A stretch of 64,000 nucleotides of DNA, from assembly GCA_034406715.1 (NCBI GenBank), contig CP137864.1, positions 186,001 to 250,000 on the forward strand, in the 5' to 3' direction. A program made the translations under genes and the position numbers. Each line of letters begins with the position of its first letter. Position 1 is the stretch's first letter. Source of the stretch: Rhodotorula mucilaginosa (lineage: Eukaryota; Basidiomycota; Microbotryomycetes; Sporidiobolales; Sporidiobolaceae). Under the pieces are notes generated by a model. The model had not been told where the DNA came from. It made no database searches and was given only the letters and a program-made list of their open reading frames with translations. This document shows positions 3,001 to 64,000 of this stretch, piece by piece.

Positions 3001-4294
3001 GCTCGCGCCGCGGGAGTTGCAACTGCGCTTGGAGCTGTTCCCCCGCCGCGGCCGCCGTACGAAGCCCCGTCGTACTCGCCAGCAGCAAGGCCGGGTCGGC
3101 ATCGTGCGAACCACTTCCGCTACCACCGCCGCTGAAGGAGAACGGACTGACGGGCGAGAGAGTCGGGAGGAATCGCCGCTCGTGGAGCGGGGCCGCCGAG
3201 TCGGCGAGGAGGGGCATGCTGGCGCTCCCGCTGATTCGTGGACTAGGTTGCACCCGTCGTAGAAGAGGAGGGTTCGAACCCGGTGGCGGAGGAGTCTGCG
3301 GCGGCCGCGGCGGCGAAGGGAAAGCCCCACTGTCTTCGCTAGCGAGGTCAGATTCCTGCGAGAGCGAATTCGTGGCGATTGTGTTTCTGGACGTGACGGA
3401 ACTTCTCCCTCCGACTGCTGCTGTTGCCGAAGACGAAGAGGAAGAGGAAGAAGAAGACGCTGCTGGAATCCCGCCACCAGCAGAACGCTTGCCGAGGTCG
3501 AGCGAGCTCGCTTTCCGGAGCAGCGAAGGCGGGATCGGATCGGTCTGGCGCAGCAGAGATGTCGAATTCGGAGGCGGTGGAGTGGCCGACTTGCCGCGGA
3601 GCGAGGAAGGCGAAAAGTTGTGACTCGCGTGACCGTACGACGCGGCGGACCGAGGGGACGGCTCTGCCCCGCCCGTGTTTGTTGTGGGCGGGTAATCGAG
3701 CCAGTGCGAGGCGGCGGCGGCAGGGTCCGCTGCAGGTTGCGCACGGGGAGAAGACGACGAGAACGCTGGGGGAAAGAGAGGAGACGACGACGACGAGGTG
3801 GTGGACGACGACGAGAGGAACGGCTCGTGTCGGTTGTTGAACAGGCCCGAGTCGCTCGAAGGCATGCGTTTCGTCGCGCGCACGCTGGGTGTCGTCTCGT
3901 GCCCGTGCCCATGCCCGTGCCCGTGCCCATGGCCCGGCGTCGTGGGTCCGATCCCGAGTCCCCTCGTCGACGATGCTGCGCCGGCACCATGCTGGTCCGA
4001 GTTGCTTCTCGCGACGGCAGGAGGAGGAGGCGGTCTCGGACTATTCGCCTTGAACGACCTCCACAGCAACTCGTTCTCCTGGACTGCGGAATCGCGTTCC
4101 TGCGTCAGGGCGGCGTGCTGCGAGACGAGGCGGTTGTACCGCGAGACGAGGGTCGCGAGCGCGCGGGCGGGGTCGTTGTCGTATTCGACGAGCAGGGCCG
4201 AGAGCGAGACGGCTGCGAGGGCTTGTTCACGTTCAGCCGGAGCGATGCGAGGGGCAGCAGCAGTCGAAGACGGCGACATGTTGGCCGAGTCCAC
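1..4294 (-). CDS. BEM3: Bem3-like Rho GTPase-activating protein (PX-PH-RhoGAP), partial
   Basis: Stimulates GTP hydrolysis by Cdc42/Rho GTPases and so limits polarity signalling at the cell cortex (family knowledge). A long Ser/Pro/Gly-rich N-terminal region is encoded at about 4294-2520 and includes a run of Gly-His repeats near 3900-3935. A PX-type phosphoinositide-binding domain follows at about 2510-2130. A PH domain is next (EGWLTKKGRAF, GGWQTRYYIL, then DERDAWIQALTTL) at about 2000-1560. The RhoGAP domain begins near 850, with the arginine finger in GIFRLSG and the motif AGLLKQYLRDLPPPLL. Introns fit at about 2046-2127, 1750-1820, 639-700 and 170-245. The last visible stretch (NAETSKMNLRNLGIVFSPTL) is typical RhoGAP, and an apparent donor then leads off the window, so the C-terminus is missing. 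Start chosen at MDSANMSP; a second ATG lies five codons in. Domain order supports Bem3 rather than other RhoGAPs. Confidence 0.88.
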
Positions 4295-7506: not shown

Positions 7507-9852
7507 GTGCTCTCCTCCACCTCCCCAACGCCCGATATGGCGACCCCGCACCCAACTCCGCCGGCGGCGGAGATTCACAATCCGGTTCATCCGACCACCG
7601 CGGCAACTATTCCTCCGCCAGCCCGGGATAGTCGTGAGGAGGCAGCTCTACCGGGAGATGACGGCATGACCGCCGTCGAGGCGATCAAGAGTCGAGGCGT
7701 CGACTTGCAGAAGGAGTGGACGGAATCGCCCGAACACCCGCAGAATTGGCCGGACCGGAAACGATGGACAATCGCACTCGTCATTGCATTGACTGGCTTT
7801 CTGGTGCGCACTGTTCCTCTTTCCTTGCGAGGAGGGGTCGATGCGGCAAAGACAGCGAGTTGACGACGGTACCCGCCTCGGCGCAGAGTACGGCCGACTC
7901 GTCCGTCTTTGTCGCCGACATCCCAACCGTCCAGGACCGATACAACGCCAGCAAAGAACTCGCAACTCTTACCATCTCGCTCTACGTGGTCGGGCTCGGC
8001 TGCGGACCGTTCGTGTTTGCGCCGCTGAGCGAGCTGTACGGACGTCAGCGCGGTTATGTCGTTTCGATGATCGGTTCGTCGAAGTTATCACTCCAGCATC
8101 ATCCCTTTCAGCGCCACTAACTATCGTACATACAGGCTTCACCTTTATGAACCTCGGATGTTGCTTCGTCGACAAGTGAGGCGTTTCAGCTCGCGCTTTG
8201 ACTGCGACGGAAAGTTTCGCTCCGCATGCTGACAAGCTGCATACTTTGATTGCCGTCGCCATTCAGTCTACCAGGCTTTATTGTGTTGCGCTTGTGAGTC
8301 ACAGGCCGCTCGTATCTGCGCTACCTCGCGACTGACCCGGATCCGTTCGCAGTCTTGCGGGCTTTTTCGGGAGCAGTGGTCCTGGCTTAGGAGTCGCCAC
8401 TATCTCCGATCGTAAGTCCCGATACGCACCGAGAGATGCTCTCCTGGAGCTCACAAGCTGCTTGCAGTCTTTAAGCCCTACGAACGTGGTCGTCCGATTG
8501 CGATTTATGGCATCGTGAGTTCCGCCCGCAAACTCGCTCAATTTTCTGCTCCGGATCTGACGCTTGTTCGCTCCCTGCAGGGACCGATGCTCGGTACGCA
8601 CACCTGCCGACTCTGAGCTAAGTGTGTTACGTACGCTGACGAGTCCTTGCATGACGGGCAGGTCCGGTCATCGGATCCTTACTCGGAGAATGGCTCGTCC
8701 TCCTCTCCTGGCGCTGGCCCATGCGCCTCATGACTATCCTGATCGGCATCAACACGTGTTGCGTGATTCTGTTTATGCGCGAAACATACAGTCCGGTGCT
8801 CGAGCGGAAGTGGCTCACGCGAAGGATCGCGGCGGAGACGAGCGAGAAAGGCGAGGAGGCGGACGCAATCGTCGCATCTGTTGCGCCGCAGCCCAGCTTC
8901 CGCGAGCTTGCCGTCCGAACCTTCACTGTACGTCCCATTCTTGCAGCTTCTGGTGTTGAGCGCTGGTTGGTTTCCACACGAGCGAAAAGTTGACGACTCC
9001 CGTCACCTGCGCAGCGACCGCCTCGGCTGCTGATGAACCCGATCTGCGGGATGTTCGCTACATACTATTCGATCTGCTACGGGTCCATTTATATCTTCAT
9101 TGTCTCGACGTAAGCCTAGGCGGATCTGAGCGCCTCGTCCATGACTGACTCACTCGCTCCACCGGATGCTAACGGATTCCTCGAAGCCGTTCAGAACTGA
9201 CGCCTCTTTCGAACGCAGGCCTCTACTCTTTTCCAAGCACAACGACAACCTGTTCTCGTACAACTGGCCGGCAGGAACGGCTGGACTCGGCTACGTCCCG
9301 ATCGGTATTGGTTTCGTCGCCTCAGCAATGACGGCAGCTTTCACGCAAGATCGAATCTACAAGCACCTCTCACGCCGCTACGGCACTCGAGGCGTGCCCG
9401 AGTACCGTCTGGTCCTAACCCAGGTGAGCCATTACGCCCACTCCGCTGTACATGAACCGCGATTGACGGTTTGAGCACAGATCGGCATGATCATCTTCCC
9501 GGCGGGCCTCTTGATGTACGGCTGGACCGCCCAAGCTCAAACACATTGGATCCTACCAATGATCGGCAGCGTCGTCTTCTCCTACGGCTTGATGCTCTGC
9601 TTCAACTCGCTGCAGAATTATTTGGTCGACGCGTTCTACCCGTACGGCGCCGCCGCGATGGCGGGCGCGACGCTGCTGCGCAGCGTGACGGGAGCGATCC
9701 TCCCCATCTTTTCTCCGATCATGTACAAGAACCTCGGCTACGGGATCGGCAATACGATCATCGCCTGTGTACTCCTCCCCGCCATCCCGGCACCGTTCGT
9801 CGTCTTCAAAGCTGGCGAACGATTACGCGAACGGTGGAAGTTCAGGCCGTAA
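7507..9852 (+). CDS. MFS drug:H+ antiporter, DHA1 family (upstream tandem copy)
   Basis: Predicted 12-helix plasma-membrane proton antiporter exporting drugs, polyamines or other small molecules; substrate unknown. Eleven exons join in frame: 7507-7803, 7887-8073, 8136-8175, 8267-8293, 8353-8411, 8468-8514, 8581-8593, 8662-8927, 9015-9109, 9219-9423, 9481-9852, giving 535 codons plus stop. DHA1 hallmarks are APLSELYGRQRGYVVSM (motif A) and GPMLGPVIGSLLGEW (motif C). The cytoplasmic N-terminus (about 95 residues) ends with the HPQNWPDRKRW segment usual just before helix 1. Exons 4 and 7 are only 27 and 13 nt, and exon 2 uses a GTTCGT donor. The next gene downstream is a close paralogue with the same exon pattern. 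An ATG ten codons further in is an alternative start. Confidence 0.9.
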
Positions 9853-10753: not shown

Positions 10754-12992
10754 ATGCTCCCTTCGCCTCCAAGTCGCCGGACAACGCCTTCGACGTCCGC
10801 AAGCACGACATCCTCAAAATCGCAGAGGCCGTCAGAATCGATTGGCGCGCAAGACGAAGTGGTGGAGGAGCGCATGAGCAAGCTCGACACGGCGATAACG
10901 AGTCCGACCGTCGACTTGCAGAAGGAATGGACCGAATCGCCCCAACATCCGCAGAACTGGCCAGACCGCAGAAGATGGACAATCGCACTCGTCATTGCAT
11001 TGACGGGCTTCCTTGTACGTGACTTCCTTGTTCTCCCGTGGCTCGGATACTCGGCGTGCGCGCTGACGCCGACCCGGTCTCCGGCAGAGCACGGCCGACT
11101 CGTCCGTTTTTGTCGCCGACATTCCGATCGTCCAGGAGCGCTACGGCACGAGCAGGGAAACCGCGACCTTGACGCTTTCACTTTACCTCGTCGGGCTCGG
11201 ATGCGGACCGTTTGTCTTTGCGCCGTTGAGCGAACTCTACGGGCGACAACGTGCTTACGTCGTTTCCATGATCGGTGAGTTGCTGAACTCATGCTTGCAG
11301 CGTACATTCTGCTGACCATTGTTGCCGTCGTGTGCACAGGCTTTACACTGATGAACCTAGGATGCTGCTTTGTCGATAGGTGCGTTTCACGTCCGCTTGC
11401 TCGGGTCAAAGGTTCCTTCCTCCCTTTGCGGCCCGCCACTCATTCGCTTTCCCGACGATCAGTCTCCCTGGCATCATCGTGTTGCGATTGTGAGTCCACA
11501 AACTCTTGAGCTCGTCCGTGTCGCCGACGCCAACGCTGACTCTGCTGATTCTCGCGCAGTCTCGCGGGCTTCTTCGGCAGCAGCGGCCCAGGTCTCGGAG
11601 TCGCGACCATCTCGGATTGTGAGCTCGTTGCTTGCACCGCACAGAAACAGCCCAATTAATGCTTCTTTCTGCACTCAGTGTTCAGACCGCATGAACGGGG
11701 TGGACCGATTGCGATATATGGCATCGTGAGTCGCTCGGCTAGAATCGCTGCGTCGTTCCTGCTAACGACTCTGATCTGCAGGGCCCTATGCTCGGTTCGT
11801 TGGCCGCGCACTCCAGCTCACTTGACGGAGAGGCGTATGAAGCTTACCCTGCCACCACGCTGACACAGGTCCCGTCGTCGGATCGCTCTTGGGCGGCTGG
11901 CTCGTCCTCATTTCGTGGCGTTGGCCGATGCGCCTCATGACCATCATCATCGGCATCAATACAGTTTGCGTGATTGCGTTCATGCGCGAGACGTTCGGGC
12001 CGGTGCTGGAACGAGAATGGCTCGCCCAGCGACTTCAAGACGAGGATGGCGAAAAAGGCGAGCCCGAAGCAATCGTCTCTTCAGCCGTACCGCAAATAAC
12101 TTTCCACGAGCTTGTGATTCGGACGTTCACGGTATGTACTCCAAGACTCGCTGCAACCTGGAGGCATTGACCCAATGCCTAGCACATCTCTGCAGCGCCC
12201 GCCTCGCCTCCTTGCAAACCCGGTCTGCGCGATCTTCTCGACATACTATGCATACGTGTATTCATGCATATTTTGCTTCATTGTGACGATGTACGTAATC
12301 AAGTCCCTTCGATATCTCCGTGGCTGTTCTGACGTTCCGAAGCAACAGACCGCTGTTGTACGCTCGCCACCACGAGCCCACGGACCTCTTCACCTACAAC
12401 TGGCCGGCTGGAACCGCAGGCTTGGCCTATATCCCTCTCGGCATCGGCTTCGTCGGATCTGCAATCACGGCCGCCTTGACTCAAGATCGCATCTATCGTT
12501 ATCTCTCGGAACGGAGTAGGAACGACGGCATCCCAGAATACAGGCTCGTCGTGACACAGGTATGCTGCGCAATTCTCTTGTTTGACCGCAAGCACATTTT
12601 CTGAATGAGCAAGCGTGCAGATCGGCATGGTCATTTTCCCCGTCGGCCTCTTCATCTTCGGCTGGACCGCTCAAGCCGAAACGCATTGGATCCTGCCCAT
12701 GATCGGCAGCGTCGTCTTCTCCTACGGTTTAATGCTCTGCTTCAACTCGCTGCAGACGTACATCTCCGACGCCTTTTACCCGTACGGAGCAGCGGCGATG
12801 GCAGGCGCGACGTTGCTGAGATCTGCGACGGGCGCAATCATGCCCATCTTTGCGCCCATCATGTATCGGAACCTCGGGTACGGCGTGGGCAGTACCATCC
12901 TGGCCTCCGTTGCCGCCGTCGCTATACCCGCGCCTTTCCTCATGTTCTTCTACGGAGAAAGATTCCGCGGCAGATTCAAATTCGTTCCCTAG
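10754..12992 (+). CDS. MFS drug:H+ antiporter, DHA1 family (downstream tandem copy)
   Basis: Close paralogue of the transporter ending at 9852. Eleven exons join in frame: 10754-11014, 11088-11274, 11340-11379, 11463-11489, 11560-11618, 11679-11725, 11782-11794, 11869-12131, 12196-12290, 12349-12559, 12621-12992, giving 524 codons plus stop. Eight of eleven exons have exactly the same length as in the upstream copy, including the 27- and 13-nt exons; exons 8 and 10 differ by multiples of three. Motif A (APLSELYGRQRAYVVSM) and motif C (GPMLGPVVGSLLGGW) are intact. The cytoplasmic N-terminus differs most between copies, while the last exon is nearly the same. Two complete copies suggest dosage or substrate divergence; the substrate cannot be read from sequence. 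Confidence 0.9.
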
Positions 12993-22529: not shown

Positions 22530-25248
22530 ATGCCGCCAACCCGCTCTCGAAGAACGCCAGCACCCCCTGCCGCCCTCGACAACTCGCCGAGACTGTCACC
22601 GAGTCGCCAGGGTGCGTCGCCGCAAGCGCGAATGGGCGACTTGTGGGTCGAGGAGATGGCGCACTCGATCTATCAAGACGAGCGCAATGCCCGCCCCGCC
22701 AGCACCACCCGCTCGTACGAGGCCAAGCAGCGGGACTGGCGCGCTTGGTGCGACAAGCGAGAGTTCCCTGCGGCCACTCTGTGCGTGACCCCTCTCTTGC
22801 TCGCGGGTCTGCTCTTGATCTCGCTGACACTTTCCTCTTGGACTTGCAGATACACAGTGACCGGTCCCAAACTCGCAGCATTTCTACAAGAGGAGGTTGT
22901 CGGCCGTCGCCCTCGTCCGCGCGGCCCGCCTCCGAAGGACGGCAGCAAGAGGAGCGCTGCAAGGGCGAGAAGAAAGGAAGCGACCGATGGAGCAAGTGCC
23001 GGGATGCAGCAAGGCGAGGAGGCTATACAGGATCACGAACAAGATCAAGGAGACGAAGGCGAGGCAGCGCTTGCAGCGCTCATGGACGGTATGTCTGTCT
23101 CGCTTCACTTCCTTCCAAGTTCCTCGCGATGGAAGTGGATCTGATGCACACTTTTCTGCATAGACCCGCTCGCCAAGTCGGTCGCGCCTTCCACCGTGTC
23201 CACCTACTACGCCGCCGTCGTCGACCTATACAAGCTGCAGCGCAGCCTCGGCACCAACAGCCACCCTCATCCCAGCGAGACCGACGCGGTGAAAACCGTC
23301 CTCAACACGACGAAGATGCAGCGACAGCAGGCAAAACGGGACTCGTATCACGATAGAGGCATCAGTGAGTGATCTGTGCATGATCTGACTCGGACTATCC
23401 ACGCTCTCGAAGCTGACACGCCGTCGCATGCCCCCTTCCAGGTACGCTGAACGACGGTTACTCGCACCGCAGTCAGCTCGCGGCGCTTCTGCGCACAGGC
23501 TGGGAGCGAAAGACCGGTGACGGCCTCCGCGACATGCTGTGTATGGCGCTGAGCCACTACGCCCTTCTGCGCTCGCACAACACGCTCGAGCTCGAGCTCC
23601 CTGACCTCGCGTGTTTGGAGCTCGAGGGCGAGGGCGAGTCGCGGTGTTTAGCTGTGCTGCTCATCCTGCAGCACGGCAAAACCAACAAGCACGGCCGGAT
23701 GGAGTACGGGGCATTTATCCGGAACAAGGACGTCGAAGTCTGCCCCGTCGGCATTCTCGCATTTTATCTCTTTTGGCGGTGCGTGTTTCTGTCCGTACCT
23801 CTCTTGCTGTTGATTTGTTTTGCTGACCACCACTCTTTCCTACAGCTTCCACCTCGCGAACGAGCGCTTCCCGCCCGAGGATTCGACTTTCCCGTCGCTC
23901 GACTCGTCGCGGGATTGGTTCGACTTGAAGGTGATCCGGTCCGGCAAAGGTCCGACCGATCCCCTCACGTCCACAACCTACAGCAACGCAGTCAAGGCGG
24001 CCCAGAAGGCGGCCAACATTTCCGCGTCCGCCTTGACGCACATCTTCCGAAAAGGCGGCGCCATCCTCGCAGAACTCGGTGGAGCGAGTAAGGCGGATAT
24101 TCGGCAGGCAGGCCGGTGGAACACGCAAGTCATGGAACGAGTATACTTGACAACACTTCCCCGAGAGACGATGCGATCCCACGCGGGATTTGCTGCCTCG
24201 GGTCGCGAATTTTACATCAAGCGAGACTTGCCGGTTCCGCCGGAATTGCTCGCCAAGATCTTCCCGGAAGTCGAGACATGGTGAGTAGATATCTCTGTGT
24301 TTCTCTTTGTGCAATGCAAGCTGAAGTTCTGCCAACTTGGTTCTCAGGCAACGGCGTTTCGAGGCGGGCAACGTACAGGAGCGGACAATCGCCGCAGCGA
24401 GCTTTCTCAACCTCCTGTCCGAGCTACGATCCGTGGTGCTTCAAGATGCTGCTATCATGCGCTTGAAGTACCCGGATCACCCCCTCTTCTGTCATCCGGT
24501 CTTCGCCTCAGATTCGTTCCGATCGTTTTCGGATGCCATGGCGATCCGCCTGCGCGAGGCGCCCGACATGCCGTACCACCTCGAGATGGAGCGGGTTCTC
24601 CCCGGCGTCGCTTCCATGATCAAGACTCAGCACGATGCGACTCGCAGCACCATCGCAGACCTGCAGGCTGCCGTGTCCGAGATGCGCCAAGCCGATGCGA
24701 ACTCGTCCTCCCGCATTCTCTCGTACCTCGGCAGCCTCTTCAGTGGCGCTATTCCGATTACGCTCCAGGCCGGCGTCGCCATTGACCACGCCGCTTCAAC
24801 CATCAACAGCGGAGCGAGTCAAGCCGCCTTCGGACTTGCCGCGGAAGGGTCTGCCTCGGCAACAACGTCCGCGACACCGGCGGCATCGGCAGCTCGACCT
24901 GTGGACTTCAAGATGAACCGCAAGATCGTGACGGTGGAGCAGGCTTGGCGGGAGTGGAAGGAGGGGCTTGTCCCCGGCGGACCGAGTGTCGAGGCCACGT
25001 ACGTGAAGGGGACGCCCAGCTGGGCAGCACTCAAGGCAGATGGCGCCGAGGACCGGTACTACAGGCGGCGCCTGAGGGTGATTCAAAAGGTGGAGCAGAT
25101 CATGCAGGCAGAATCTGTGCCTGCCTTGAAGGCTGTGGCCGCTCTCGAGCAGTTCCGGGTGAACCAGCCAAATTCTTCGTTGGCCAAGTTGCAGGAGCTA
25201 TTGAACTCTGACCCAGATGTACATATCCCCATCTATCCTGTAGATTAG
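22530..25248 (+). CDS. Crypton tyrosine recombinase with GCR1_C domain
   Basis: Six exons join exactly in frame: 22530-22780, 22850-23088, 23164-23364, 23442-23778, 23846-24280, 24348-25248, giving 787 codons plus stop. The N-terminus is Pro/Arg-rich. A SAM-like core-binding region follows (residues about 35-230, with ARPASTTRSYEAKQRDWRAW). The catalytic domain has the expected residues: Arg in LLRSHN (about 274), His-x-x-Arg in THIFRK (about 408 and 411), Trp in GRWN (about 434) and the Tyr nucleophile in MERVYLTT (about 443). A GCR1_C-type domain lies at about 675-740 (FKMNRKIVTVEQAWREWKEG, then YYRRRLRVI). The enzyme should cut and rejoin DNA through a phosphotyrosine intermediate. A longer start 14 codons upstream is also open. 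Whether it is expressed is unknown. Confidence 0.88.
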
Positions 25249-26332
25249 CTCCCTTCACTGCATTCATTTGATCCGCACTTTCTTGCCCGTGCTTTCTGAC
25301 CTCCGACGCGCAAAATCAGCTACAAAGTGGCCCCACCCCTACGGCCCTGTCCATGGCCAGAGGACCTGGATGAAGCATGTCTACAGCTACTCACAATCCT
25401 CAGGAGTGGGGCTTGTGAAGGACCTGGTCATATAGCTCTCTTGTCTCTGACAGATTTGGGTTTTTGCACGCTTCTGGCACCTCCAGAAAAAAAAAACCTC
25501 TGCCTCGCTATGCGCGCTCCGGAGCGACCCGCTTTGACTTTCCTGCGGGCAATCTAAGTACTCGAAAGGTACATGTAGCGCTCTAGAGGCTTAAAAGGTG
25601 CTATAGGGAAAGCTGTGCTGCAAAAACTGATCAGGTGGCGCGCGGCTCGGAACTGAGCAAGAGAGTCAAGCACCTCCCCTGCTTCTTCCACATCATTTTT
25701 GAGGTCTTTCTTTGTAGCATTCGCCCTCTAGTACTTTGCTGTTCCCAATAATGCTTTATTTGATACATATACCGCTGCCTGTATAGAGTATTGACGTCCT
25801 TTTCGTCGTCCTTTTCGCTCCCTTCCGCGCAAAGCGGAGCGCCGACTGTGTCAATATGCGCTGTCGCTATGCAGGCCAATAAAAGCTACAAGCAGGACAG
25901 GCTGACCTCGAGCAGGGTCTAGACTTGTCTTGTAAGCACTTGCATGAAGCGAACAAGTTGCAGCGGAGCGACAGCAGGGCGAGAGCGAAGCGAGAGTGCT
26001 TCTCAAGGGCGCGCCGGACTCACGCGCGCGGACCGAGACCGGACTCCCCGCTTCGGCAGGTTGATAACGTGGCCTTCTCAACGTCAGGATTAACTTGACG
26101 ACCAAATTCATCGCCGACTTGCCACAAGCTTGCCCTGAGAGGTTGGTGTGGCTAGCCACGCACTGATGTATATGCGCACACTGTCCGGATCGAGATCTGG
26201 ATCCGATCGCCCTGATCCGTTCTCGTGGTCATGTCCGCGGACATGCCGAGGAGTTTCGTCTGTCGCACGTCCACCGAGGGTTTCCCTCCTTTCCCTCTCC
26301 CATAGTATCTCACGACCGCGTCCTTGATCCCC
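25249..26332. other. Non-coding region between Crypton gene and family A copy A2
   Basis: About 1.1 kb without a supported gene. The left part should be the 3' part of the Crypton. At 25999-26084 CTTCTCAA motifs recur together with CCGGACTC, echoing the left flank. The rest up to 26332 should be the A2 promoter. Confidence 0.45.
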
Positions 26333-27612
26333 ATGGAAGAGGACTGGCAACCCACCGAGGAGGATTGGAAGTTTATTCGGTCGCGAGATCCAAATTACTG
26401 GCCCGTGCGTATGCGTACGAGGCCCCGCCTTGGACCTTTCGCCTTCGTTTCGCATGACCTAGCCTGATCTCTCCCTGCTCCAGCTTCCACCCAAAAAGAC
26501 GCCGGAACAGTGTGAAGCAATATACGCAGGCTTGTTCCGGAACTTTTACGAAAAACACCCTCGGGTTTGTCGCAGTCTACCGGCGACATGGCTTGTCCCA
26601 CTCCACTTCAAGGCATGCTCCGGGCACTGATACGCGTTCTTAGCTGGCAGCATCAGGTGTTCCCTTTGACCACTTGGCCCCGCTCATCAAGGCGGCCGTG
26701 CGCGAATTCATGGAGGTCACATTCTGTCGCGAGCCGCTGACAAAGACCACCGGACTCACACCGTCACCCGTCCATGTTCCTCTCAATTTGAACCTACCTC
26801 ATGTCATTGGTCGCCCTGCCTCCGGGTGCTCGGAAGGGACAGGTACGCTCAATTGGTGCTTGATTGGTCAGGATTGTGTAAAATGCTAAGGACGCTTTAC
26901 TCCTGGACCCCGAAGCAGCACAAGAGCCAATTCATATTTACATCCGCCCGCTCCAATTACCGGCTCGCTGGGTTCAGCGTTGCACCGGAGGCAGCAGGGG
27001 AAACCCCCAGAAATTCTTTCACGAACTGGTGGCGGCAGCAAGTGATGATGGCAAGGTGCAAGAGAGGGTATCCGGCCCCTGTTTCATGCGCGTCATGTTC
27101 AAGACCATATCAGGCAAGAGGACCTGCTACTACTACAGGACGGAAGCAGCCACTCGGTCTTCCCAGGCTTTGCAGGAGTGCCGGCGTTTTTTATATGAAT
27201 TTGTGGTCAACAGTTGGTGCAGTGTCTCCTTCTTTCTCTCTATACAAGAGCATGACACATTACATCCATCTTGGCAACAGTATCTGACGAGGCTGAAAAT
27301 GTGGTGCAATATTGGGTCCAGCTAAAGCAGCTTGGTGACCCAGAGGCGAGGCTTCAAGTCAACTCAGCAGGGCGGAGTGCGCAAGAACCAGACCAACTGC
27401 CTCAGGAGGCTCGTATTGTCAGGTTTGCACTCACTGTCCAGCGCCTTGCAGCTGGCCACCAAGTTGGGTCTCCTGATGTTCACCTTTGCCTGATCTTTGA
27501 TCCGGATGTCCCGCTGTGGCGGGAGAATCCGCCTTTGTTCTTTCCCACTGCGCGTGCATTGGGAAAAGGAGTGCAAGTGTTCCATCCAGAACGGAACTTC
27601 ACATATATTTGA
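26333..27612 (+). CDS. Unknown protein, family A copy A2
   Basis: Second copy of the unrecognised family. A five-exon model joins in frame: 26333-26404, 26484-26564, 26644-26842, 26916-27221, 27281-27612, giving 329 codons plus stop. Exons 1 and 2 match A1 in length, exons 2 and 3 match A4. Shared blocks: EEDWKFIRSRD, FRNFYEKH, LAASGVPFDHLAPLIKAAVR, LPHVIGRPASGCSEGTG, PIHIYIRPLQLPARW, SGPCFM, LKQLGDPEARL and HLCLIFDPDVPLWRE. The acceptor of exon 4 and the donor at 27222 (GTGTCT) are the weakest choices; another junction there would shift the frame, so the exon 4 end is less certain than in A1 or A4. A family B gene follows about 2.2 kb downstream on the same strand. Confidence 0.68.
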
Positions 27613-28714
27613 GGTACTGTATCCCTTTTTTGTACTCTGCCTACTGAGAGTATCAACCAATTTCTTGAAAAGGCCACCTACACGAATCTCGTTCATTCAA
27701 GGTCCGCATTCTGCAGTGTTGGTCAGAAGTGCGCCTCTAGAACTCCAGCCCTTGTAGTAATGGTTTGGAATCTGCAGCCGCCGTGCTTGGCTCTGAGGTG
27801 CCGCTGATGCTCAATCCCTCATCTTTGACCCAGAGGTTCCACTTTGGCGACACAAGTACGTGGGCACTCTGCATAGCGCTTCCACTTGTCAATCTTGTCT
27901 AGCATTTGAGCTTGAAGCAAATGTCACCACTCTTCTCGAGAGCAGGGGCAGGTCAAGAGCAACCTCGCCTTGACGCCTTTCCGAGTCTCTGTCGCCCGAG
28001 GTGGACCCCGAAATAAACAGCCTCGTTTCCCGCAGTGGGCGGGCTTACTCTGACTGAGAGCTCTATACACCTGTAAGATAGCTGGCGCAGCAAGGAGGTG
28101 TGACTGACACGGTTGCAAGCTGTTTTCCCTCGGTGTTTCCAGACCGCCGAAGGAAAGGGTGCCGCACCACTGGCCGGCTCGAGCCGGATTGCATGCATCC
28201 CGCACTCCCCTTGTTGTCACTCCAGTGCAAGAGACTCGTCTGAGAAGTGTAGTTGTTGCGGTGTTATCCATAGATAGACTTTGCGGTGGGTGGCGGAGCC
28301 TTCTCAAGTGCGCACAAGGACAGCCACTGTCGAGGAAAGAAGTACAGGGGGATTGCAATCAGAGGTCAAGGATGATAGAGGAGCTTAGTTCACCTGCGAA
28401 GGAGTTGCTGGCCGCCCGCAGCGAGCCCACACTGGTCAGTCCCTCTGAGTTTTGGACTGTTTTTCGTTTGTGTTTGTTTTTTTGCCTCAGATTCAGTGCG
28501 GGCTCTTGCCACCTCCGGTCGCTCCACCGGCCAGCGCACACTCTCGCTACGTCGCCATGGACGTTGGCTACGCGCTGGGTCAAGCGTATTTGGCTCGGAA
28601 GCAAGTCCGGCGACGTTGTAGCCAGCGAAAGTAGCTTTTGCACGGAAGGAAGCGCGCAATCGACCGCACGAGCCGTCCGCATGTCCGCTCGGTCAAGCTG
28701 CCGCCTTCTGCCTC

Positions 28715-29512
28715 TCACTCCGCCTTGATTGTCATGCGGGACATCCGACGGCGCCCGAAAAACGCGTCCGTTGCAGCAGGAACGCGCTCACGATCCCATC
28801 TTTGCCACCCGCGCCCTCTCGCCGTCGACGACGCGCCAGCGCCCAGCAGCTGATTCCGCGATTCCCATCCTCTTTCCTGTACGACGCCGCCCCGCCGAAC
28901 GACCAAGACTCGCAGCACATAGCGAACCTCGCCTTCTGCGGCAAGGACACGTTCCGCTTCCCCGTGTGGTCCACGCTGGTGACGCTGTTTGACCGGATCC
29001 TTCAACTCTTCCGACAATCCCGTCGTTATGACCTCTGCGGTGCCATAACTGCATCAGTACTCGAATTCAATCGGCATAGAAGCGTCAACGAAGCCGTCTG
29101 CAAGTTGCCACTCGCTCTGAATCGCTTATCGCTGCACGCTGAGCAGCACGACACGCTCTTTTTCTCTTGCGACCAACTCTTGCAGCGCCGATTTCCGCCT
29201 TGACGTGCGCTTTTTTACGCGTCCGCCCGCATGAGGTCGAGTATCACCGCTCAAGAGCTTCATCTCTTCTCTTCACACGGCATAGCAGGCGACCTCGACG
29301 CTCGCTTGGGTTTGCAGGACCCAAGAGAGCCTCTGCGGTACCTCAAAAGCATCTTCGGGCCTCCTACGGCCTCCCTCCGGATGTTGCTGGCTGGATTTGC
29401 CACTATCGCCACTTCAACCCCGCAGACCCGCCATCTCGCCGACGCGCCGTGTGACGAAGCGTGTTTACTCGCCGCCGACGCGCCCAGGCAGCGCGAGATT
29501 TTGAGGGCCTGA
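28715..29512 (+). pseudogene. Decayed open-frame block upstream of B1, possibly F-box-like
   Basis: A block conserved in all three duplicated segments. Pieces of protein-like sequence recur (NLAFCGKDTFRFP; ITAQELHLFSS; DPREPLRYLKSIFGPP; HLADAPCDEACLLAAD), but they lie in different frames in different copies and no copy gives one clean gene. The opening piece (SLPPAP, then LYDAAPPNDQDSQHIANLA) is reminiscent of an F-box N-terminus, followed by Leu-rich pieces. That reading is weak. It could instead be an untranslated leader or promoter of the B gene. Confidence 0.35.
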
Positions 29513-29793
29513 TCCAGGACGCTGCCGCTACCCAGGACACGCTCCGGAACCGCACACCAGATCGATGTTGTGCTAGTGATTTGCCACCGAGCGAGCTGGC
29601 GTGCCGCGCGGGGGTGGCAACGCTCGAGCTTATCAGACGGCGAGCTCAGCTCAAGACTGGAGCGCTCCCTCTCTTTCCTTCCTTTCCTTCACTTGCACCG
29701 ACAAGCTCCCTCCCCTGGCTATACGCTCAGGCGCTCCCTGCTCCTCTCCAGCATCCCTTCTTCAGTTCCGCGCCACACAGCAAACTCGCAAAG

Positions 29794-31134
29794 ATGTTCG
29801 GCTCGACGTTCCTCGCTGGCTGCAGCGCCGTGCTGCGCACGCTCGAAGGTCTGCTTGTGCTTGCTGCCACGTCTTCGGTGAGTCTCTGGCTTGCTCCATA
29901 GCCTCTGCGCTCTCGAGCTCGCGTGCTGACTCAGCTTCGTCGTCGTCCCACTTTCCGCTCCTCGCAGACGCCGGCCCGCAACTTTTACCGGAACTCGCGT
30001 GCCACCAACAAGCACAACTCGGTCTCTGACCCCGCCCCCGCTGTCCCGGTCGTCGAGAAGGCGGAGGAGGAGGACTCGCTCGAGTGCCCTCCGAGCCCGC
30101 CCGTCTCCGACTCGTCCTCCGTCTTCTCGCAGTCGTCCAGGGATCTGTTCGACTCGGACACCGAATGCGATGAAGAAGAGAAGCTCGACGCTCCTTTGCC
30201 AGCTCGCTCGCGCGCTTTCGCCCTCAAACTCGACGCCCTCCACTTTTGGCTCTCGCGCTCCGACCTCTCGACGGCGGATCTCGCCCGAGTCCGCTCGTTC
30301 GGCATCCGGATGATCGAGTCGGAAGAGATCTACGAGATCCAGTACGAGCAGTTGCGGCTCAATGTCAAGGCGGCCAAGTTTGTCGAGCGGGAGGATGTCC
30401 GCAACGAGCGCCTGAGGGAGCGCCTCTCGCGCGCCCTTGACGACTTCGCACGCGAGCAACGACAGGCGGCGGCCGCCCTCCTCGCCCCTCCTTCCGAGGC
30501 CGAGCAGTCTCCCGACGACGACTCTGTGACGCGGCTGTACTGGCCAACGCAGTCCCACTCGCGCACCATCTCCTCTGCCGTCGCCCTCATTGCCTCCACC
30601 GACTCGCACACCATCGACCTCTCCCGCGCGCGGTCGTTTATCCGCCGGTCCCCTTCCTCTGTGCGCCGCGCGCCTAGCGAACGGCCAGCCCGTTCCTTGG
30701 GCAAGTCGGAGTCGCTCCTCCGCTCGACGCTCGACGCCAGCGTCCGACCGGCGTACCGAGCTTACAAGCGGCGGGAGCAGCACGCTCAGGCAATGGCTCG
30801 CATCGCTTCGGTCTCGCGACCGGTCGACGTCGCCCCTCGTTCCTGCTCCGGCGCCGGCGCCGTCTCGGAGGTTCAGCGACAAGGTCCGCGGAAATTCAGT
30901 GGGATCCCGCTTGAGAACTCGTACGCCACCCCGAGCAAGGCCATCGGCCTCGGACGACCGCCTGCGCTGTACAAATCGGCCGCAGCGCCTCGCTCTCGCA
31001 TCCCGATTCCGATTGCGACTCCGAGCAAGACCCACACCCCGACTCCCACTCCGAGCTGCGAAGGTCCGGCACAGCGTGCGCGAAAGTCGTACGGCGAGAT
31101 CGAACCGCGACGACGGCCTCCTTTCCGTGTCTGA
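29794..31134 (+). CDS. Unknown protein, family B copy B1
   Basis: I do not recognise this family. Two exons, 29794-29877 and 29968-31134, join in phase 0 to give 416 codons plus stop. Exon 1 encodes a 28-residue, rather hydrophobic N-terminus (MFGSTFLAGCSAVLRTLEG) that could be a signal or membrane anchor. Then come an acidic Ser/Pro-rich stretch (EKAEEEDSLECPPSPPVSD), a helical, probably coiled-coil region (FGIRMIESEEIYEIQYEQ to REDVRNERLRERLSRALDD), and a basic Ser/Pro-rich tail ending KSYGEIEPRRRPPFRV. The tail contains PRSRIPIPIA, an SxIP-like motif. The frame is open further upstream, but copy B3 breaks it just before this ATG, which supports the chosen start. A family A gene lies upstream on the same strand. 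Confidence 0.7.
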
Positions 31135-31601
31135 TCCCCTCCTCTCCCTCTTACTCCGGTGACTTTCATCTCGCACACTCTTGTCCTGGTGACTTGCTCT
31201 TCATCCCGCGCCTGGGTCTGCCTCTTGTGAATAGCTGTTGTATGGAATAGAGACTCTTATTCAAACAGACTTGCAAGCTCGAGAGCGCCGACAGAACGGA
31301 AGAGCGACACGGCGTGGCGAAAGCAGCTCGGCTCGGAAAGTTTTCTGCTCAATTTTCGGAGCTCTTCTGCTGCCCGCTTGCCGGCGAGATTCGCTTGTGA
31401 CCGCTCCGAGTCGAGCGTTACCGTATCCAACAGCCGCTTCCAACGAGGGCATGGGCGAGCTCGATATGGTCGACCTCCGCGCTCGATCAACTCCGCGCTC
31501 AGCGAAGCAAAGCGATCGAATCGAAAAACATGACGCTGCTCCTCTTTCGCTTTCTCTCCCACCAAAGCCTCGACTCGCTTGCATAGGGAGCAAGGCGCAG
31601 T
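31135..31601. promoter_or_regulatory. Region between B1 and the glycogen debranching enzyme gene
   Basis: About 470 bp holding the 3' end of the duplicated segment (to about 31265) and the promoter of the next gene. No further coding sequence seen. Confidence 0.5.
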
Positions 31602-45763: not shown

Positions 45764-47107
45764 TCAGACGCGGAAAGGAGGACGTCGTCGCTGCTCGATC
45801 TCGCCGTACGACTTTTGCGCTACGAGCGCAGGACCGGCGCCGCCCGGAGCGGGAGTCGGACACTGCAAAGTCGCCGACTTGATCGGTTTCGCAATCGGGA
45901 TTGGAATGCGAGACCGAGGCGCTGCGGCCGAACTCGCCAGCATAGGTGGCTTCCCAAGGCCGCGTGGAGTGCTCGCAGTCGTGGAGGTTGCGTTCTCGAG
46001 CGGGACGGCTGCGAACTTCCACGGTTCTCGTCGCGGGAATTCCGGAGCAGAGTCAGAGCAGGCGGGAGCGGAGCAGTCCGTCGGTCGAGAGACGGAAGCA
46101 ATGCAATCCGTCGTCTCCGCTTGCTGTTCCCGGCACTTGTAGGCACGGTAAGCAGGTCGGACGCCGCAGTCGAGGGTCTTGCGCAAGAGCGACTTCGACT
46201 TGCCCTTGGAACGGGCCGGCCGCTTGCGGGGCGTGGGGATGCGGCGGCAAGAAGAGGAGGAGCGGCGTAGGTAAGAGCGAGTAAGCGAGAGGTCGAAGGT
46301 GTCGACGGTGGCGTCGAGCGAGGGAGCAGAGGACAGAGCGCGAGAGTGCCACTGCGCCGGCCAACTGTACGGCCGCGCGACAAACTCGAGCGGGAGAGAC
46401 CTCACGGCTTCGCGAAGCCGAGCAAGGTGCGCTGCCTGCGGTCGCTGCTTTGCAAAGTCGTCGAGAGCGCGCGCAAGGCGGTGCATAAGGCGCTCGTTGC
46501 GGACATCCTCCCGCTCGACAAGCTTGGCCGAGTCGAGGTTGAGCTGCGACTGCTCGTACTGAATCTCGTAGATCTCTTCCGACTCGATCATGCGGATGCC
46601 GAACGCACGGACTTCGGCGGAGTCCATCGAGGCGAGACGGGAATGCTCGAGCCAAAAGTCGAGGAAGGCGACTTTGAACGCAAAAGCGCGCGATCGGATC
46701 GGCAGGCGAGTGTCGAGCTGGTCTTCCGCATCGTCGTCAGAGTCGGAGTCGAACAGATCGCTGGACGACTGCGAGAAGACGGACGACGAGTCGGAGACGG
46801 GCGGGCTCGGAGGGCACTCGAGCGAGTCCTCCTCCTCCGCCTTCTCGACGACCGGGACAGCGGGGGCGGGGTCAGAGACCGAGTTGTGCTTGTTGGTGGC
46901 ACGCGAGTTCCGGTAAAAGTTGCGGGCCGGCGTCTGCGAGGAGCGGAAAGTGGGACGACGACGAAGCTGAGTCAGCACGCGAGCTCGAGAGCGCAGAGGC
47001 TATGGAGCAAGCCAGAGACTCACCGAAGACGTGGCAGCAGGCACAAGCAGACCTTCGAGCGTGCGCAGCACGGCGCTGCAGCCAGCGAGGAACGTCGAGC
47101 CGAACAT
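45764..47107 (-). CDS. Unknown protein, family B copy B2
   Basis: Two exons, 47107-47024 and 46933-45764, join in phase 0 to 417 codons plus stop. Exon 1 is 84 nt as in B1 and B3, and the 90-nt intron is identical to that of B1. The first 85 or so residues are almost the same as B1, but after FSQSS the protein diverges strongly while keeping landmarks: FGIRMIESEEIYEIQYEQ, VEREDVRNERL, GVRPAYRAYK, PRSRIPIPIA and KSYGEIEQRRRPPFRV. Conservation of the overall layout and open frame despite this divergence argues for a translated protein under constraint. Function unknown. A diverged family A copy (A3) lies upstream on the same strand. Confidence 0.7.
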
Positions 47108-60081: not shown

Positions 60082-61321
60082 ATGGAGCAGGCCTCTCAAC
60101 CCGGTCCCGAGGATTGGCAAAAGAAGTTGCACTTCATACAGTCGCAAGAGTCAGACTACTGGGCCGTGCGTACTTGCGCCTGCCTCCTCTCCCTCTCCTA
60201 GTATGGTCTCGCGTTACTTAGACGTCTGGCCATTTTAGCCCGGAATTGCGACCGATCCGAGAGGATATGAAAAAAGCTACGGCGAAATTTTTCGAGACTT
60301 CTACCACCAGCACGACCGCGTCTGTACCAGCTGACCTGAAAGCGTAGACTCTTTAAAAGATGAGACACTGACATGCGTTGATTCATAGCTCGCCGCCTCC
60401 GGAGTTCCATTCGATGACCTGGCGCCTCTCATTTGTGCGGCCATGCGCGAATTCACGGAAGTTACTTTCTATCGCCCGCCGCTCAAGAGCAATGAGGGAG
60501 ATCCGCTGTCGCCTACAGCTATTCCTAAGGATTTATTCCTTCCGCACGTCATTGGTCGACCGGTTACAGGACGCTCAGCAGGAACAGGTACGCTCAAAAG
60601 CACCCATCATGATTTTGCCATCTTTTCTGTAGGGAGGGTCTGAGCCAAACTTGCCTCTGGACCCAGAGCACGAACCCATCGACATCTATATTCGCCCTCT
60701 CATGTTGAAGGCAGGCTGGATCAAACGCAAGAAACAACAACAGGGAGGAAAGCAATCGACATTCCGGGAACTCGTCACTGCCGAACTGAATGGTGTGCCA
60801 GATGAAGCCACTGTGGCCGGTCCCTGTTTCCTTGCTGCAAAGCTTTGCAAAGACACGGTCTACTTCCAGAGCAAGAAACAAGCTGTAATTTGCTTCAGGA
60901 CAGAAAAGGCAAATTGGGCTGCCAAGCGGAACTTCTTCTCCTACACCTTTGATTTTTGGGGTCAGTAACTGAATTCCTTCCCATGCAAAGACCTGACTGA
61001 TCATTACTTGTACTTCACACAGACATCAAAACTCGCAGCGAGGCCCGCAGTGGGCCAGCCTACCGAGTTCAACTGAAACAGCTTGGGGATCCGATGGAGA
61101 GGCTTCGTCAAGTGGGCCCATGCCCGTCCCTTGCAGGCATCAGAGCAAGGCGTTTAGTCAAGTTTGCCTTCAGCATACATCCCATTGTCCCAGACCTTCA
61201 AGCTGAATCTTGCGGCATTCATTTCCGTCTGATCTTTGACCAGGACGTCCCGCTCTGGCGGGAAGAGTACCGTCAACCCGCTTACATTCCTACTGCGCGT
61301 AGACCAGGCAGAGGTGTGTAG
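60082..61321 (+). CDS. Unknown protein, family A copy A4
   Basis: The cleanest copy of the unrecognised family. Five exons join in frame: 60082-60165, 60239-60319, 60389-60587, 60637-60960, 61023-61321, giving 328 codons plus stop. Blocks in order: MEQASQPGPEDWQKKLHFI, FRDFYHQHDR, LAASGVPFDDLAPLICAAMR, LPHVIGRPVTGRSAGTG, EPIDIYIRPLMLKAGW, ATVAGPCFLAAKL, VQLKQLGDPMERL and HFRLIFDQDVPLWREE. Splice positions coincide with A1 and A2. No transmembrane segment, signal peptide or catalytic signature is evident; the regular mix of charged and hydrophobic residues suggests a folded soluble protein. It precedes B3 by about 1.4 kb on the same strand. Confidence 0.74.
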
Positions 61322-62700: not shown

Positions 62701-64000
62701 ATGTTCGGCTCGACGTTCCTCGCTGGCTGCAGCGCCGTGCTGCGCACGCTCGAAGGTCTGCTTGTGCCTGCTGCCACGTCTTCGGTGAGTCTCTGGCTTG
62801 CTCCATAGCCTCTGCGCTCTCGAGCTCGCGTGCTGACTCAGCTTCGTCGTCGCCACTTCTCGCTCCTCGCAGACGCCGGCCCGCAACTTTTACCGGAACT
62901 CGCGTGCCACCAACAAGCACAACTCGGTCTCTGACCCCGCCCCCGCTGTCCCGGTCGTCGAGAAGGCGGAGGAGGAGGACTCGCTCGAGTGCCCTCCGAG
63001 CCCGCCCGTCTCCGACTCGTCGTCCGTCTTCTCGCAGTCGTCCAGCGACTTGTTCGACTCGGACACCGAATGCGATGAAGAAGAGAAGCTCGACGCTCCT
63101 TTGCCAGCTCGCTCGCGCGCTTTCGCCCTCAAACTCGCCGCCCTCCACTTTTGGCTCTCGCGCTCCGACCTCTCGCCGGCAGACCGCGCTCATGTCCGCT
63201 CGTTCGGCATCCGGATGATCGAGTCGGAAGAGACCTACGAGATCCAGTACGAGCAGTCGCAACTGAATGTCAAGGCGGCCAAGTTTGTCGAGCGGGAGGA
63301 TGTCCGCAACGAGCGCCTGAGGGAGCGCCTCTCGCGCGCCCTTGACGACTTCGCACGCGAGCAACGACAGGCGGCGGAACTCGCTTGTCTTCCTGAGGCC
63401 GAGCAGTCTCCCGACGACGACTCTGTCGCGCGGCTGTACTGGCCGGCGCAGTCCCACTCGCGCACCATCTCCTCTGCCGTCGCCCTCATCGCCTCCACCG
63501 ACTCGCACACCATCGACCTCTCCCGCGCGCGGTCGTTTATCCGCCGGTCCCCTTCCTCTATGCGCCGCGCGCCTAGCGAACGGCCAGCCCGTTCCTTGGG
63601 CAAGTCGGAGTCGCTCCTCCGCTCGACGCTCGACGGCAGCGTCCGACCGGCGTACCGAGCTTACAAGCGGCGGGAGCAGCACGCTCAGGCAATGGCTCGC
63701 ATCGCTTCGGTCTCGCGACCGGTCGACGTCCCCCCTCGTTCCTGCTCCGGCTCCGGCGCCGTCTCGGAGGTTCAGCGACCGAGTCCGCGGAAATTCAGTG
63801 GGATCCCGCTCGAGAACCCGTCCGCCACCCCGAGCAAGGCCATCGGCCTCGGACGACCGCCTGTGCTGGCCAAGTCGACCCCAACGCCCCGGTCTCGCAT
63901 CCCGATTCCGATTGCAACGCCAATCAAGACCCCAACCCCGACCCCGACTCCCACTCCGAGCTGCGAAGGTCCTGCGCGGCGAGTGCGAAAATCGTACGGC
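62701..64000 (+). CDS. Unknown protein, family B copy B3, partial (window edge)
   Basis: Exon 1 at 62701-62784 (84 nt) and exon 2 from 62873 to beyond the window. Exon 1 and the start of exon 2 match B1 and B2 closely; the intron is two bases shorter. Through the helical middle and Ser/Pro tail it stays close to B1 (FGIRMIESEETYEIQYEQ, VEREDVRNERLRERL, PRSRIPIPIA) and is less like B2. Just before the ATG it lacks a few bases present in B1 and B2, closing the upstream frame and supporting the start used for the family. The final bases visible encode the start of the KSYGE tail, so only the last dozen or so residues should be missing. Confidence 0.7.

What the first reader, a model, noticed from the sequence alone, without database searches (positions are those of the whole stretch)
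26333..31134. Repeated two-gene cassette: unknown family A gene always upstream of unknown family B gene
A2-B1 (+), A3-B2 (-) and A4-B3 (+) keep the same order and orientation at three loci on both strands, each between unrelated housekeeping genes. Neither protein shows a domain I know, and neither looks like a transposase, reverse transcriptase or capsid protein. A conserved, dispersed pair of intact genes could be a selfish two-gene element, a paired surface or recognition system, or a transposon cargo. The linkage is seen directly; the functional options are inference.
Basis: partly seen in the sequence, partly recalled or inferred. Interest (0 to 1): 0.88.

Follow-up and report, generated by a model that had tools for sequence, protein, structure and literature searches.

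The report
Locally duplicated red-yeast gene pair
A pair of neighbouring genes of unknown function, found here in Rhodotorula red yeasts, has been copied several times within one short stretch of one chromosome, and one of the two genes keeps overwriting the front end of its sister copies; it looks like an ordinary local gene family, not a jumping element.

Summary
The pairs are real: A2-B1 (+), A3-B2 (-), A4-B3 (+), A always upstream and co-oriented. They are not dispersed: in the held 20.35-Mb genome (B1 identical to a Rhodotorula mucilaginosa protein) every detected A (4) and B (3) copy lies within 45 kb of one contig. A1 has no B; A3 carries an in-frame stop. Neither family has a convincing Pfam or PDB match; all hits with species names are Rhodotorula. 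Adjacency recurs in R. pacifica (consecutive locus tags). No terminal repeats of 16 bases or more mark the cassettes.

A copies are old (dS about 1.7-2.0, omega 0.24-0.33). B copies look young partly because their 5' part is homogenised: B1 and B2 are identical over 434 alignment columns of leader and exon 1, stay 95-100% alike into exon 2, then drop to 63-83%. In two species the B N-terminus groups by species, the C-terminus by paralogue: non-allelic gene conversion. Best reading: a resident, [17 protein letters not shown] pair multiplied by local, partly inverted duplication. Biochemical role unresolved: B is mostly disordered with a hydrophobic N-terminal helix; A is tentatively beta-rich. 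Between A1 and A2 lie a young Crypton-like element and an rDNA fragment, probably unrelated.

The parts
19182..20439 (+). A1: five-exon A-family gene (326 aa), no B downstream
   Evidence: Gene model with four GT-AG introns; own-genome search; omega 0.31-0.33 against A2/A4
26333..27612 (+). A2: five-exon A-family gene (326 aa with one choice of last donor); six donor/acceptor choices keep the frame open, none a clear consensus
29794..31134 (+). B1: two-exon gene (exons 29794-29877, 29968-31134), 416 aa, identical to JCM8115_002843
28487..31267 (+). B1 homology block: about 1.1-1.3 kb non-coding upstream DNA plus B1
   Evidence: 82% to B2 block, 89% to B3 block; no 3-base periodicity upstream, codon-position bias and only multiple-of-3 indels in exon 2
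29423..30143 (+). Gene-conversion tract: B1 and B2 identical over 434 shared columns (29423-29860, leader and most of exon 1); B1-B3 identical 29956-30116 and B2-B3 29956-30143 (B1 coordinates)
   Evidence: Longest runs in 2000 shuffles: 76 for B1-B2, 55 for B2-B3, 147 for B1-B3 against 161 observed; sliding identity
48780..50223 (-). A3: A-family gene with TAA in exon 2 and no GT at the homologous intron-3 donor; probable pseudogene in this strain
   Evidence: long branch in the A tree
45764..47107 (-). B2: two-exon gene (exons 47107-47024, 46933-45764), 417 aa
60082..61321 (+). A4: five-exon A-family gene (318 aa)
   Evidence: Four GT-AG introns; omega 0.24-0.31
62701..64000 (+). B3: two-exon gene (exons 62701-62784, 62873-64036), 415 aa; runs 36 bases past the window

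Best explanation
This is a resident, [17 protein letters not shown] Rhodotorula gene pair (A, then B, same strand) that multiplied by local segmental duplication, one copy inverted, inside a 45-kb stretch between ordinary genes. The A copies diverged long ago under purifying selection and one (A3) is decaying. The B copies exchange sequence by non-allelic gene conversion that overwrites the leader, exon 1, intron and start of exon 2 but largely spares the rest of exon 2, giving a shared front end on divergent bodies. Shown: structure, location, selection, conversion pattern. Inferred: A and B are expressed host proteins; B is a mostly disordered protein with a moderately hydrophobic N-terminal helix (perhaps membrane- or organelle-associated) and further helical segments, A a soluble, possibly beta-rich partner or neighbour. 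That A and B act together is only a guess from adjacency.
For: Own-genome searches: 13 of 13 A and 6 of 6 B exon matches in one stretch of C1. Block identity 82-89%. Omega A 0.24-0.33, B 0.47-0.53. B synonymous difference in the first quarter 0.04-0.09; in the other quarters of the B1-B2 and B2-B3 pairs 0.36-0.45. B1-B2 identical run of 434 columns, 0 of 2000 shuffles reach it. N-part of B 99-100% identical within R. mucilaginosa and 98-100% within JG-1b but 74-75% between them; C-part of B2 86% to JG-1b 27889 but 62-64% to its own sisters. R. pacifica A and B tags consecutive. No repeats of 16 bases or more at common cassette ends. B model: helices 4-23, three between 110 and 200, one at 280-308; 270 of 416 residues with pLDDT under 50.
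Against: A1 has no B, and A copies are far more diverged than B copies, so whole-cassette duplication is not shown directly; it needs conversion to explain the mismatch. B1 and B3 resemble each other outside the 5' part too (89% in the C-part), so their history is conversion or later duplication. The shuffle test for B1-B3 is weak (161 observed, 147 the maximum shuffled). In R. pacifica both parts of B group within the species. Conserved adjacency may reflect slow rearrangement only, and orientation in R. pacifica is unknown. No named R. mucilaginosa record for A came up, so annotators may have missed or not believed A; no expression data here. The A model is low confidence (mean pLDDT 42).
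Confidence: 0.78

Rival explanations
1. A-B is a selfish two-gene element (for example poison and antidote, meiotic driver) kept by conversion and local duplication.
For: Orphan, duplicated, conversion-rich family, as described for the S. pombe wtf family (PMC6526906, abstract and section list); B evolves fairly fast (omega about 0.5).
Against: B paralogue types are shared by R. mucilaginosa and JG-1b at 80-86% identity in the C-part, so retention is long; A is under clear constraint; no presence/absence or drive evidence; wtf is one gene with two transcripts (recalled), not a pair.
Confidence: 0.06
2. A-B is cargo of a DNA transposon, perhaps mobilised by the Crypton-like element whose terminal core sequence occurs in two A-B spacers.
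For: GGAGCCTTCTCAAG occurs 5 times in the genome: at the Crypton-like left end, in the A2-B1 and A3-B2 spacers, and at two other places (reversed control 2); CCTTCTCAA flanks the Crypton-like element at both copies. One 17-base direct repeat pair (45730 and 50171, 88%) lies near the ends of the A3-B2 stretch.
Against: CCTTCTCAA occurs only once in each of those two spacers and not at cassette ends, and not in the A4-B3 spacer; the 17-base pair is seen in one cassette only and its second copy lies inside A3 exon 1; A and B matches lie on C1 only, none beside the C8 copy of the Crypton-like element; the spacer site lies in a 70-base stretch shared by the two copies, so it counts once.
Confidence: 0.04
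3. A and B are independent neighbours; B blocks and A copies were each duplicated, and co-orientation is a by-product.
For: A and B divergence differ greatly; A1 stands alone; the high-identity block does not include A.
Against: 3 of 3 B copies lie 1.4-2.2 kb downstream of a co-oriented A; the R. pacifica tags are consecutive; B blocks are conversion-homogenised so their age is hidden.
Confidence: 0.12

Closest known systems
Locally duplicated gene families under concerted evolution by non-allelic gene conversion (general kind; recalled)
   Same: Direct and inverted copies in one region, a species-wise homogenised segment, a sharp edge to diverged sequence
   Different: Homogenisation is strongest in the 5' leader, exon 1 and start of exon 2, while the rest of exon 2 keeps paralogue identity, in two species
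[quoted passage not shown] abstract and section list seen)
   Same: Duplicated family with pervasive non-allelic gene conversion
   Different: No evidence of drive here; two separate gene families; B paralogue types are old; no sequence relationship was tested
CryptonF transposons (PMC3212892; passages seen) - for the element between A1 and A2, not for A-B
   Same: NDC10_II and GCR1_C domains, short direct repeats at both ends
   Different: The shared terminal repeat seen here is 9 bases, against the 4 to 6 described in those passages; catalytic residues were not checked

Membership tests
Gene-conversion-homogenised local gene family | Copies confined to one region | tested here: met
   13 of 13 and 6 of 6 matches within C1:205-250 kb (counts are lower bounds)
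Gene-conversion-homogenised local gene family | A segment more alike within a species than between species, with other segments following paralogue identity | tested here: met
   N-part 98-100% within each of R. mucilaginosa and JG-1b, 74-75% between them; C-part of B2 groups with JG-1b 27889. In R. pacifica both parts group within the species, which does not discriminate
DNA transposon / mobile cassette | Terminal inverted or direct repeats at common ends of the copies | tested here: not met
   repeats of 16 bases or more: cassette 1 no direct and 4 inverted pairs, cassette 2 one direct and one inverted, cassette 3 none; none marks common cassette ends. Block ends differ. Shorter repeats and target-site duplications not tested
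DNA transposon / mobile cassette | Copies at unlinked sites | tested here: not met
   (counts are lower bounds)
Selfish two-gene driver | Biased transmission or toxicity rescued by the partner | not testable with these tools
   -
Selfish two-gene driver | Presence/absence polymorphism between strains | not tested
   No strain genomes held; B is present in three named Rhodotorula sources
Velvet-domain regulators (considered for A) | Sequence-profile match to the velvet domain | tested here: not met
   No Pfam match for A1 or A4; hhalign of the A alignment with frames around this genome's velvet matches gave probabilities of 2% or less (single-sequence templates, some in wrong frames, a weak test)
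CryptonF (element 22241-26081) | Tyrosine recombinase-like and GCR1_C domains | tested here: inconclusive
   NDC10_II and GCR1_C above cut-off; the recombinase catalytic residues were not checked
CryptonF (element 22241-26081) | Short terminal direct repeats, at more than one insertion | tested here: met
   CCTTCTCAA at both ends on C1 and on C8; longer than the 4-6 bases in PMC3212892

The most novel reading that the evidence does not exclude
A-B is a two-gene conflict or recognition system of red yeasts in which directed non-allelic gene conversion keeps a common front end (leader, exon 1, intron, N-terminus of B) on selectively maintained divergent bodies, with A as the matched partner of each B.
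Probability: 0.06. Interest if true: 0.8.

Novelty: new member of a known kind. Interest (0 to 1): 0.34.

Why it matters
It documents two orphan gene families, seen here only in Rhodotorula and in unnamed contigs, and a clean two-species case of gene conversion strongest at the 5' end of a duplicated gene: a usable natural experiment on conversion tracts in a cluster with direct and inverted copies. It also removes a candidate mobile element: the pair is local, old and apparently resident. If the pair proved to be a conflict system, it would be the first such lead in this group known to me (recalled, not searched).

Tried and rejected
Transposon cassette: rejected. Viral origin of A: one viral-contig scan, 32 pattern matches, none a relative; B was not scanned. 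Mating-type link: STE3 lies on C12 and the homeobox matches on C7, not here. Velvet domain for A: an idea by eye, no support. PDB by sequence: best A match E 0.097, best B match E 0.37, taken as chance. Fold comparison with PDB: 0 matches at E 0.001 or better for A and for B; both models are poor. Coding potential of the DNA upstream of B: rejected, no periodicity and mostly single-base indels. Repeats: a 19-20-base inverted pair has one arm in the B intron and one just past the gene in B1 and B2; its CTCGAG-type core looks common here by eye, not followed. Shared promoter motif as a clue to A's role: CGGACAWGCCGMGGAG lies upstream of A1, A2 and A4, not A3, but 46 sites in the genome (control 1) sit beside mixed genes: of 10 neighbouring frames scanned, chosen by me from the 36 distinct flanks, 5 gave Pfam matches at E 0.001 or better, one of these below its cut-off, with no common theme; some of those frames run towards the site, not away from it.

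Limits: the protein searches scored only the 8000 best candidates for B and for the A profile and reach only relatives sharing exact words; remote relatives outside Rhodotorula are not excluded. B was searched from one sequence only.

Full report
WHAT IS THERE. The window is G000:C1:186001-250000 of a 20.35-Mb genome in 19 contigs. B1 (29794-31134) is identical over 416 aa to JCM8115_002843 of Rhodotorula mucilaginosa, so the window is that species or a very near one. Gene models: A1 19182-20439, A2 26333-27612, A4 60082-61321 (five exons each, four short introns), A3 50223-48780 on the minus strand, and B1, B2 (47107-45764, minus), B3 (62701-64036, plus, ending just outside the window). In A2 six donor/acceptor choices for the last intron keep the frame open and none is a clear consensus. 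The order A then B on one strand holds for A2-B1, A3-B2 and A4-B3, with 1.4 to 2.2 kb between the genes. A1 has no B.

NOT DISPERSED. Searches of the own genome with A4 and B1 gave 13 and 6 exon matches; 13 of 13 and 6 of 6 lie in C1:205-250 kb and belong to the four A and three B copies (the tool warns that counts are lower bounds). Neighbours are ordinary by Pfam: a prenyltransferase, glycogen debranching enzyme, AFG1-like ATPase, amidase. Repeats of 16 bases or more do not mark common cassette ends: cassette 1 has no direct and four inverted pairs, cassette 2 one direct pair (45730 and 50171, 17 bases, 88%, the second inside A3 exon 1) and one inverted, cassette 3 none within the window. 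The homologous B blocks end at different points.

NOT ALL INTACT. A3 has TAA in exon 2 (49915-49913 counted by eye) and, by eye, no GT where the intron-3 donor should be; its branch is 0.74 against 0.22 for its nearest relative in the A tree. Alternative splicing is not excluded, but the simplest reading is a decaying copy in this strain.

HOMOLOGUES. One-sequence searches found 2 proteins for A and 10 for B; the A profile found 14, including those 2. The hits with a species name are all Rhodotorula: R. mucilaginosa (one B), Rhodotorula sp. JG-1b (three B), R. pacifica (two B, one A). No named R. mucilaginosa record for A came up; a JGI 'hypothetical protein' of 106 aa matches exon 4 of A4 at 98%. 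In R. pacifica A is JCM10908_003272 and B is JCM10908_003273, consecutive tags, with a second B at 003282. In a tree of the exon-4 core, A1-, A3- and A4-like proteins from unnamed contigs group with the window's A1, A3 and A4 (support 0.87, 0.99, and high-identity neighbours); A2 and the R. pacifica A are unresolved (0.49), and the species of the unnamed contigs are unknown. Neither family has a Pfam match at E 0.001 or better (best 0.0029, DUF3708, 1 of 14 A pieces), a PDB sequence match below E 0.09 or a fold match at E 0.001 or better.

SELECTION. Nei-Gojobori estimates: A1-A2 dS 1.85, dN 0.61; A1-A4 1.71, 0.53; A2-A4 1.98, 0.48 (omega 0.24-0.33). B1-B2 dS 0.40, dN 0.22; B1-B3 0.10, 0.05; B2-B3 0.42, 0.20 (omega 0.47-0.53). 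dS for A is near saturation. B exon 2 shows codon-position bias of changes in its distal part and all its indels are multiples of three; the 1.1 kb upstream shows neither. So A and B look like protein-coding genes under constraint, B more loosely, and the shared DNA upstream of B is non-coding.

GENE CONVERSION. In 100-column windows B1 and B2 are 95-100% identical from about 29364 to 30163, then 63-83% in exon 2. The longest identical run of B1 and B2 is 434 shared columns (29423-29860, leader and most of exon 1); the longest in 2000 shuffles was 76. For B2-B3 it is 188 against 55. For B1-B3 it is 161 against 147, a weak result because the two are alike throughout. Between species the first 84 residues of B are 99-100% identical among the three R. 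mucilaginosa copies and 98-100% among the three JG-1b copies, but 74-75% between the two; the rest of B2 is 86% identical to JG-1b 27889 and 62-64% to its own sisters, while B1 and B3 are 80-82% identical to the other two JG-1b copies. In R. pacifica both parts group within the species (87% and 84%), which fits conversion or a separate duplication. Hence in two species the 5' part is homogenised while the body keeps paralogue identity. Whether this reflects where conversion starts or selection on the body cannot be told here.

WHAT THE PROTEINS LOOK LIKE. B: mean pLDDT 50.7, 270 of 416 residues under 50, helices 4-23, three between 110 and 200, one at 280-308, moderately hydrophobic N-terminus, about 13-14% serine. 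A: mean pLDDT 42, mostly strands, tentatively placed (the folded protein was the R. pacifica relative, 230 aa, in an alignment of 14), no hydrophobic N-terminus. These suggest, no more, a membrane- or organelle-linked disordered B and a soluble A.

MECHANISM AND VERDICT. Best-supported: local duplication of a resident pair, one copy inverted, followed by non-allelic gene conversion among B copies and decay of A3. The molecular job of A and B stays open; a joint function is only suggested by the adjacency. This is a new member of a known kind. Selfish, cargo and plain-neighbour readings are listed as rivals.

SIDE FINDINGS. Between A1 and A2 lie an rDNA fragment (20648-22183: most of 5S, spacer and the start of 18S; 99.7% identical to the rDNA on C13) and a Crypton-like element (22241-26081) with NDC10_II and GCR1_C domains, a 99.6% identical copy on C8, and CCTTCTCAA at both ends in both copies. 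Passages of PMC3212892 describe fungal Cryptons with a GCR1_C domain and short terminal direct repeats. The 16-base motif upstream of A1, A2 and A4 recurs: 46 sites in the genome.

LITERATURE. Searches for Rhodotorula with gene conversion and paralog (4 papers), Rhodotorula pacifica (15 of 20 listed), the locus-tag prefixes and strain (10 papers) and R. mucilaginosa with genome assembly or orphan genes (10 of 468 listed) showed, by title and start of abstract, no paper on these genes; in PMC12930229 the one passage with RHOSPDRAFT tags names other genes. Only the open-licence PMC library was searched.

Noticed in passing
window 22241-26081: Crypton-like element (NDC10_II + GCR1_C), 99.6% identical to a second copy at C8:114306-118151, with CCTTCTCAA at both ends in both places: apparently a recent transposition in a red yeast.
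   Followed up: partly
window 20648-22183: Fragment of the rDNA repeat (most of 5S, spacer, first part of 18S), 99.7% identical to rDNA on C13, ending about 50 bases left of the Crypton-like element; why the two lie side by side is unexplained.
   Followed up: partly
window 22237, 28295 and 48604 (minus): GGAGCCTTCTCAAG occurs 5 times in 20.35 Mb (reversed control 2); three of them are at the Crypton-like left end and in the A2-B1 and A3-B2 spacers, so the element's terminal core resembles a site shared by the spacers.
   Followed up: partly
window 19037, 26238, 59977: CGGACAWGCCGMGGAG upstream of A1, A2, A4; 46 sites genome-wide against 1 in the reversed control, with mostly unrelated flanks by eye apart from arrays: perhaps a general promoter element. 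A paper search for CGGACAAGCCG found 14 papers; the 5 listed are unrelated by title.
   Followed up: partly
G000:C12:76483-88808 (L080-L085): Six copies of that motif at exactly 2462-base spacing, identical in the 116 bases shown; the frame beside the one copy scanned encodes a pantoate-beta-alanine ligase, suggesting a tandem amplification of that gene. Read depth or assembly error not checked.
   Followed up: partly
G000:C4:517375-526774 (L058-L060): Three copies of the motif at 4692-base spacing with identical flanks as shown: another tandem array, gene not identified.
   Followed up: no
window 7680-9766 and 10891-12906: A second local duplication, 69-74% identical, in direct orientation.
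   Followed up: no
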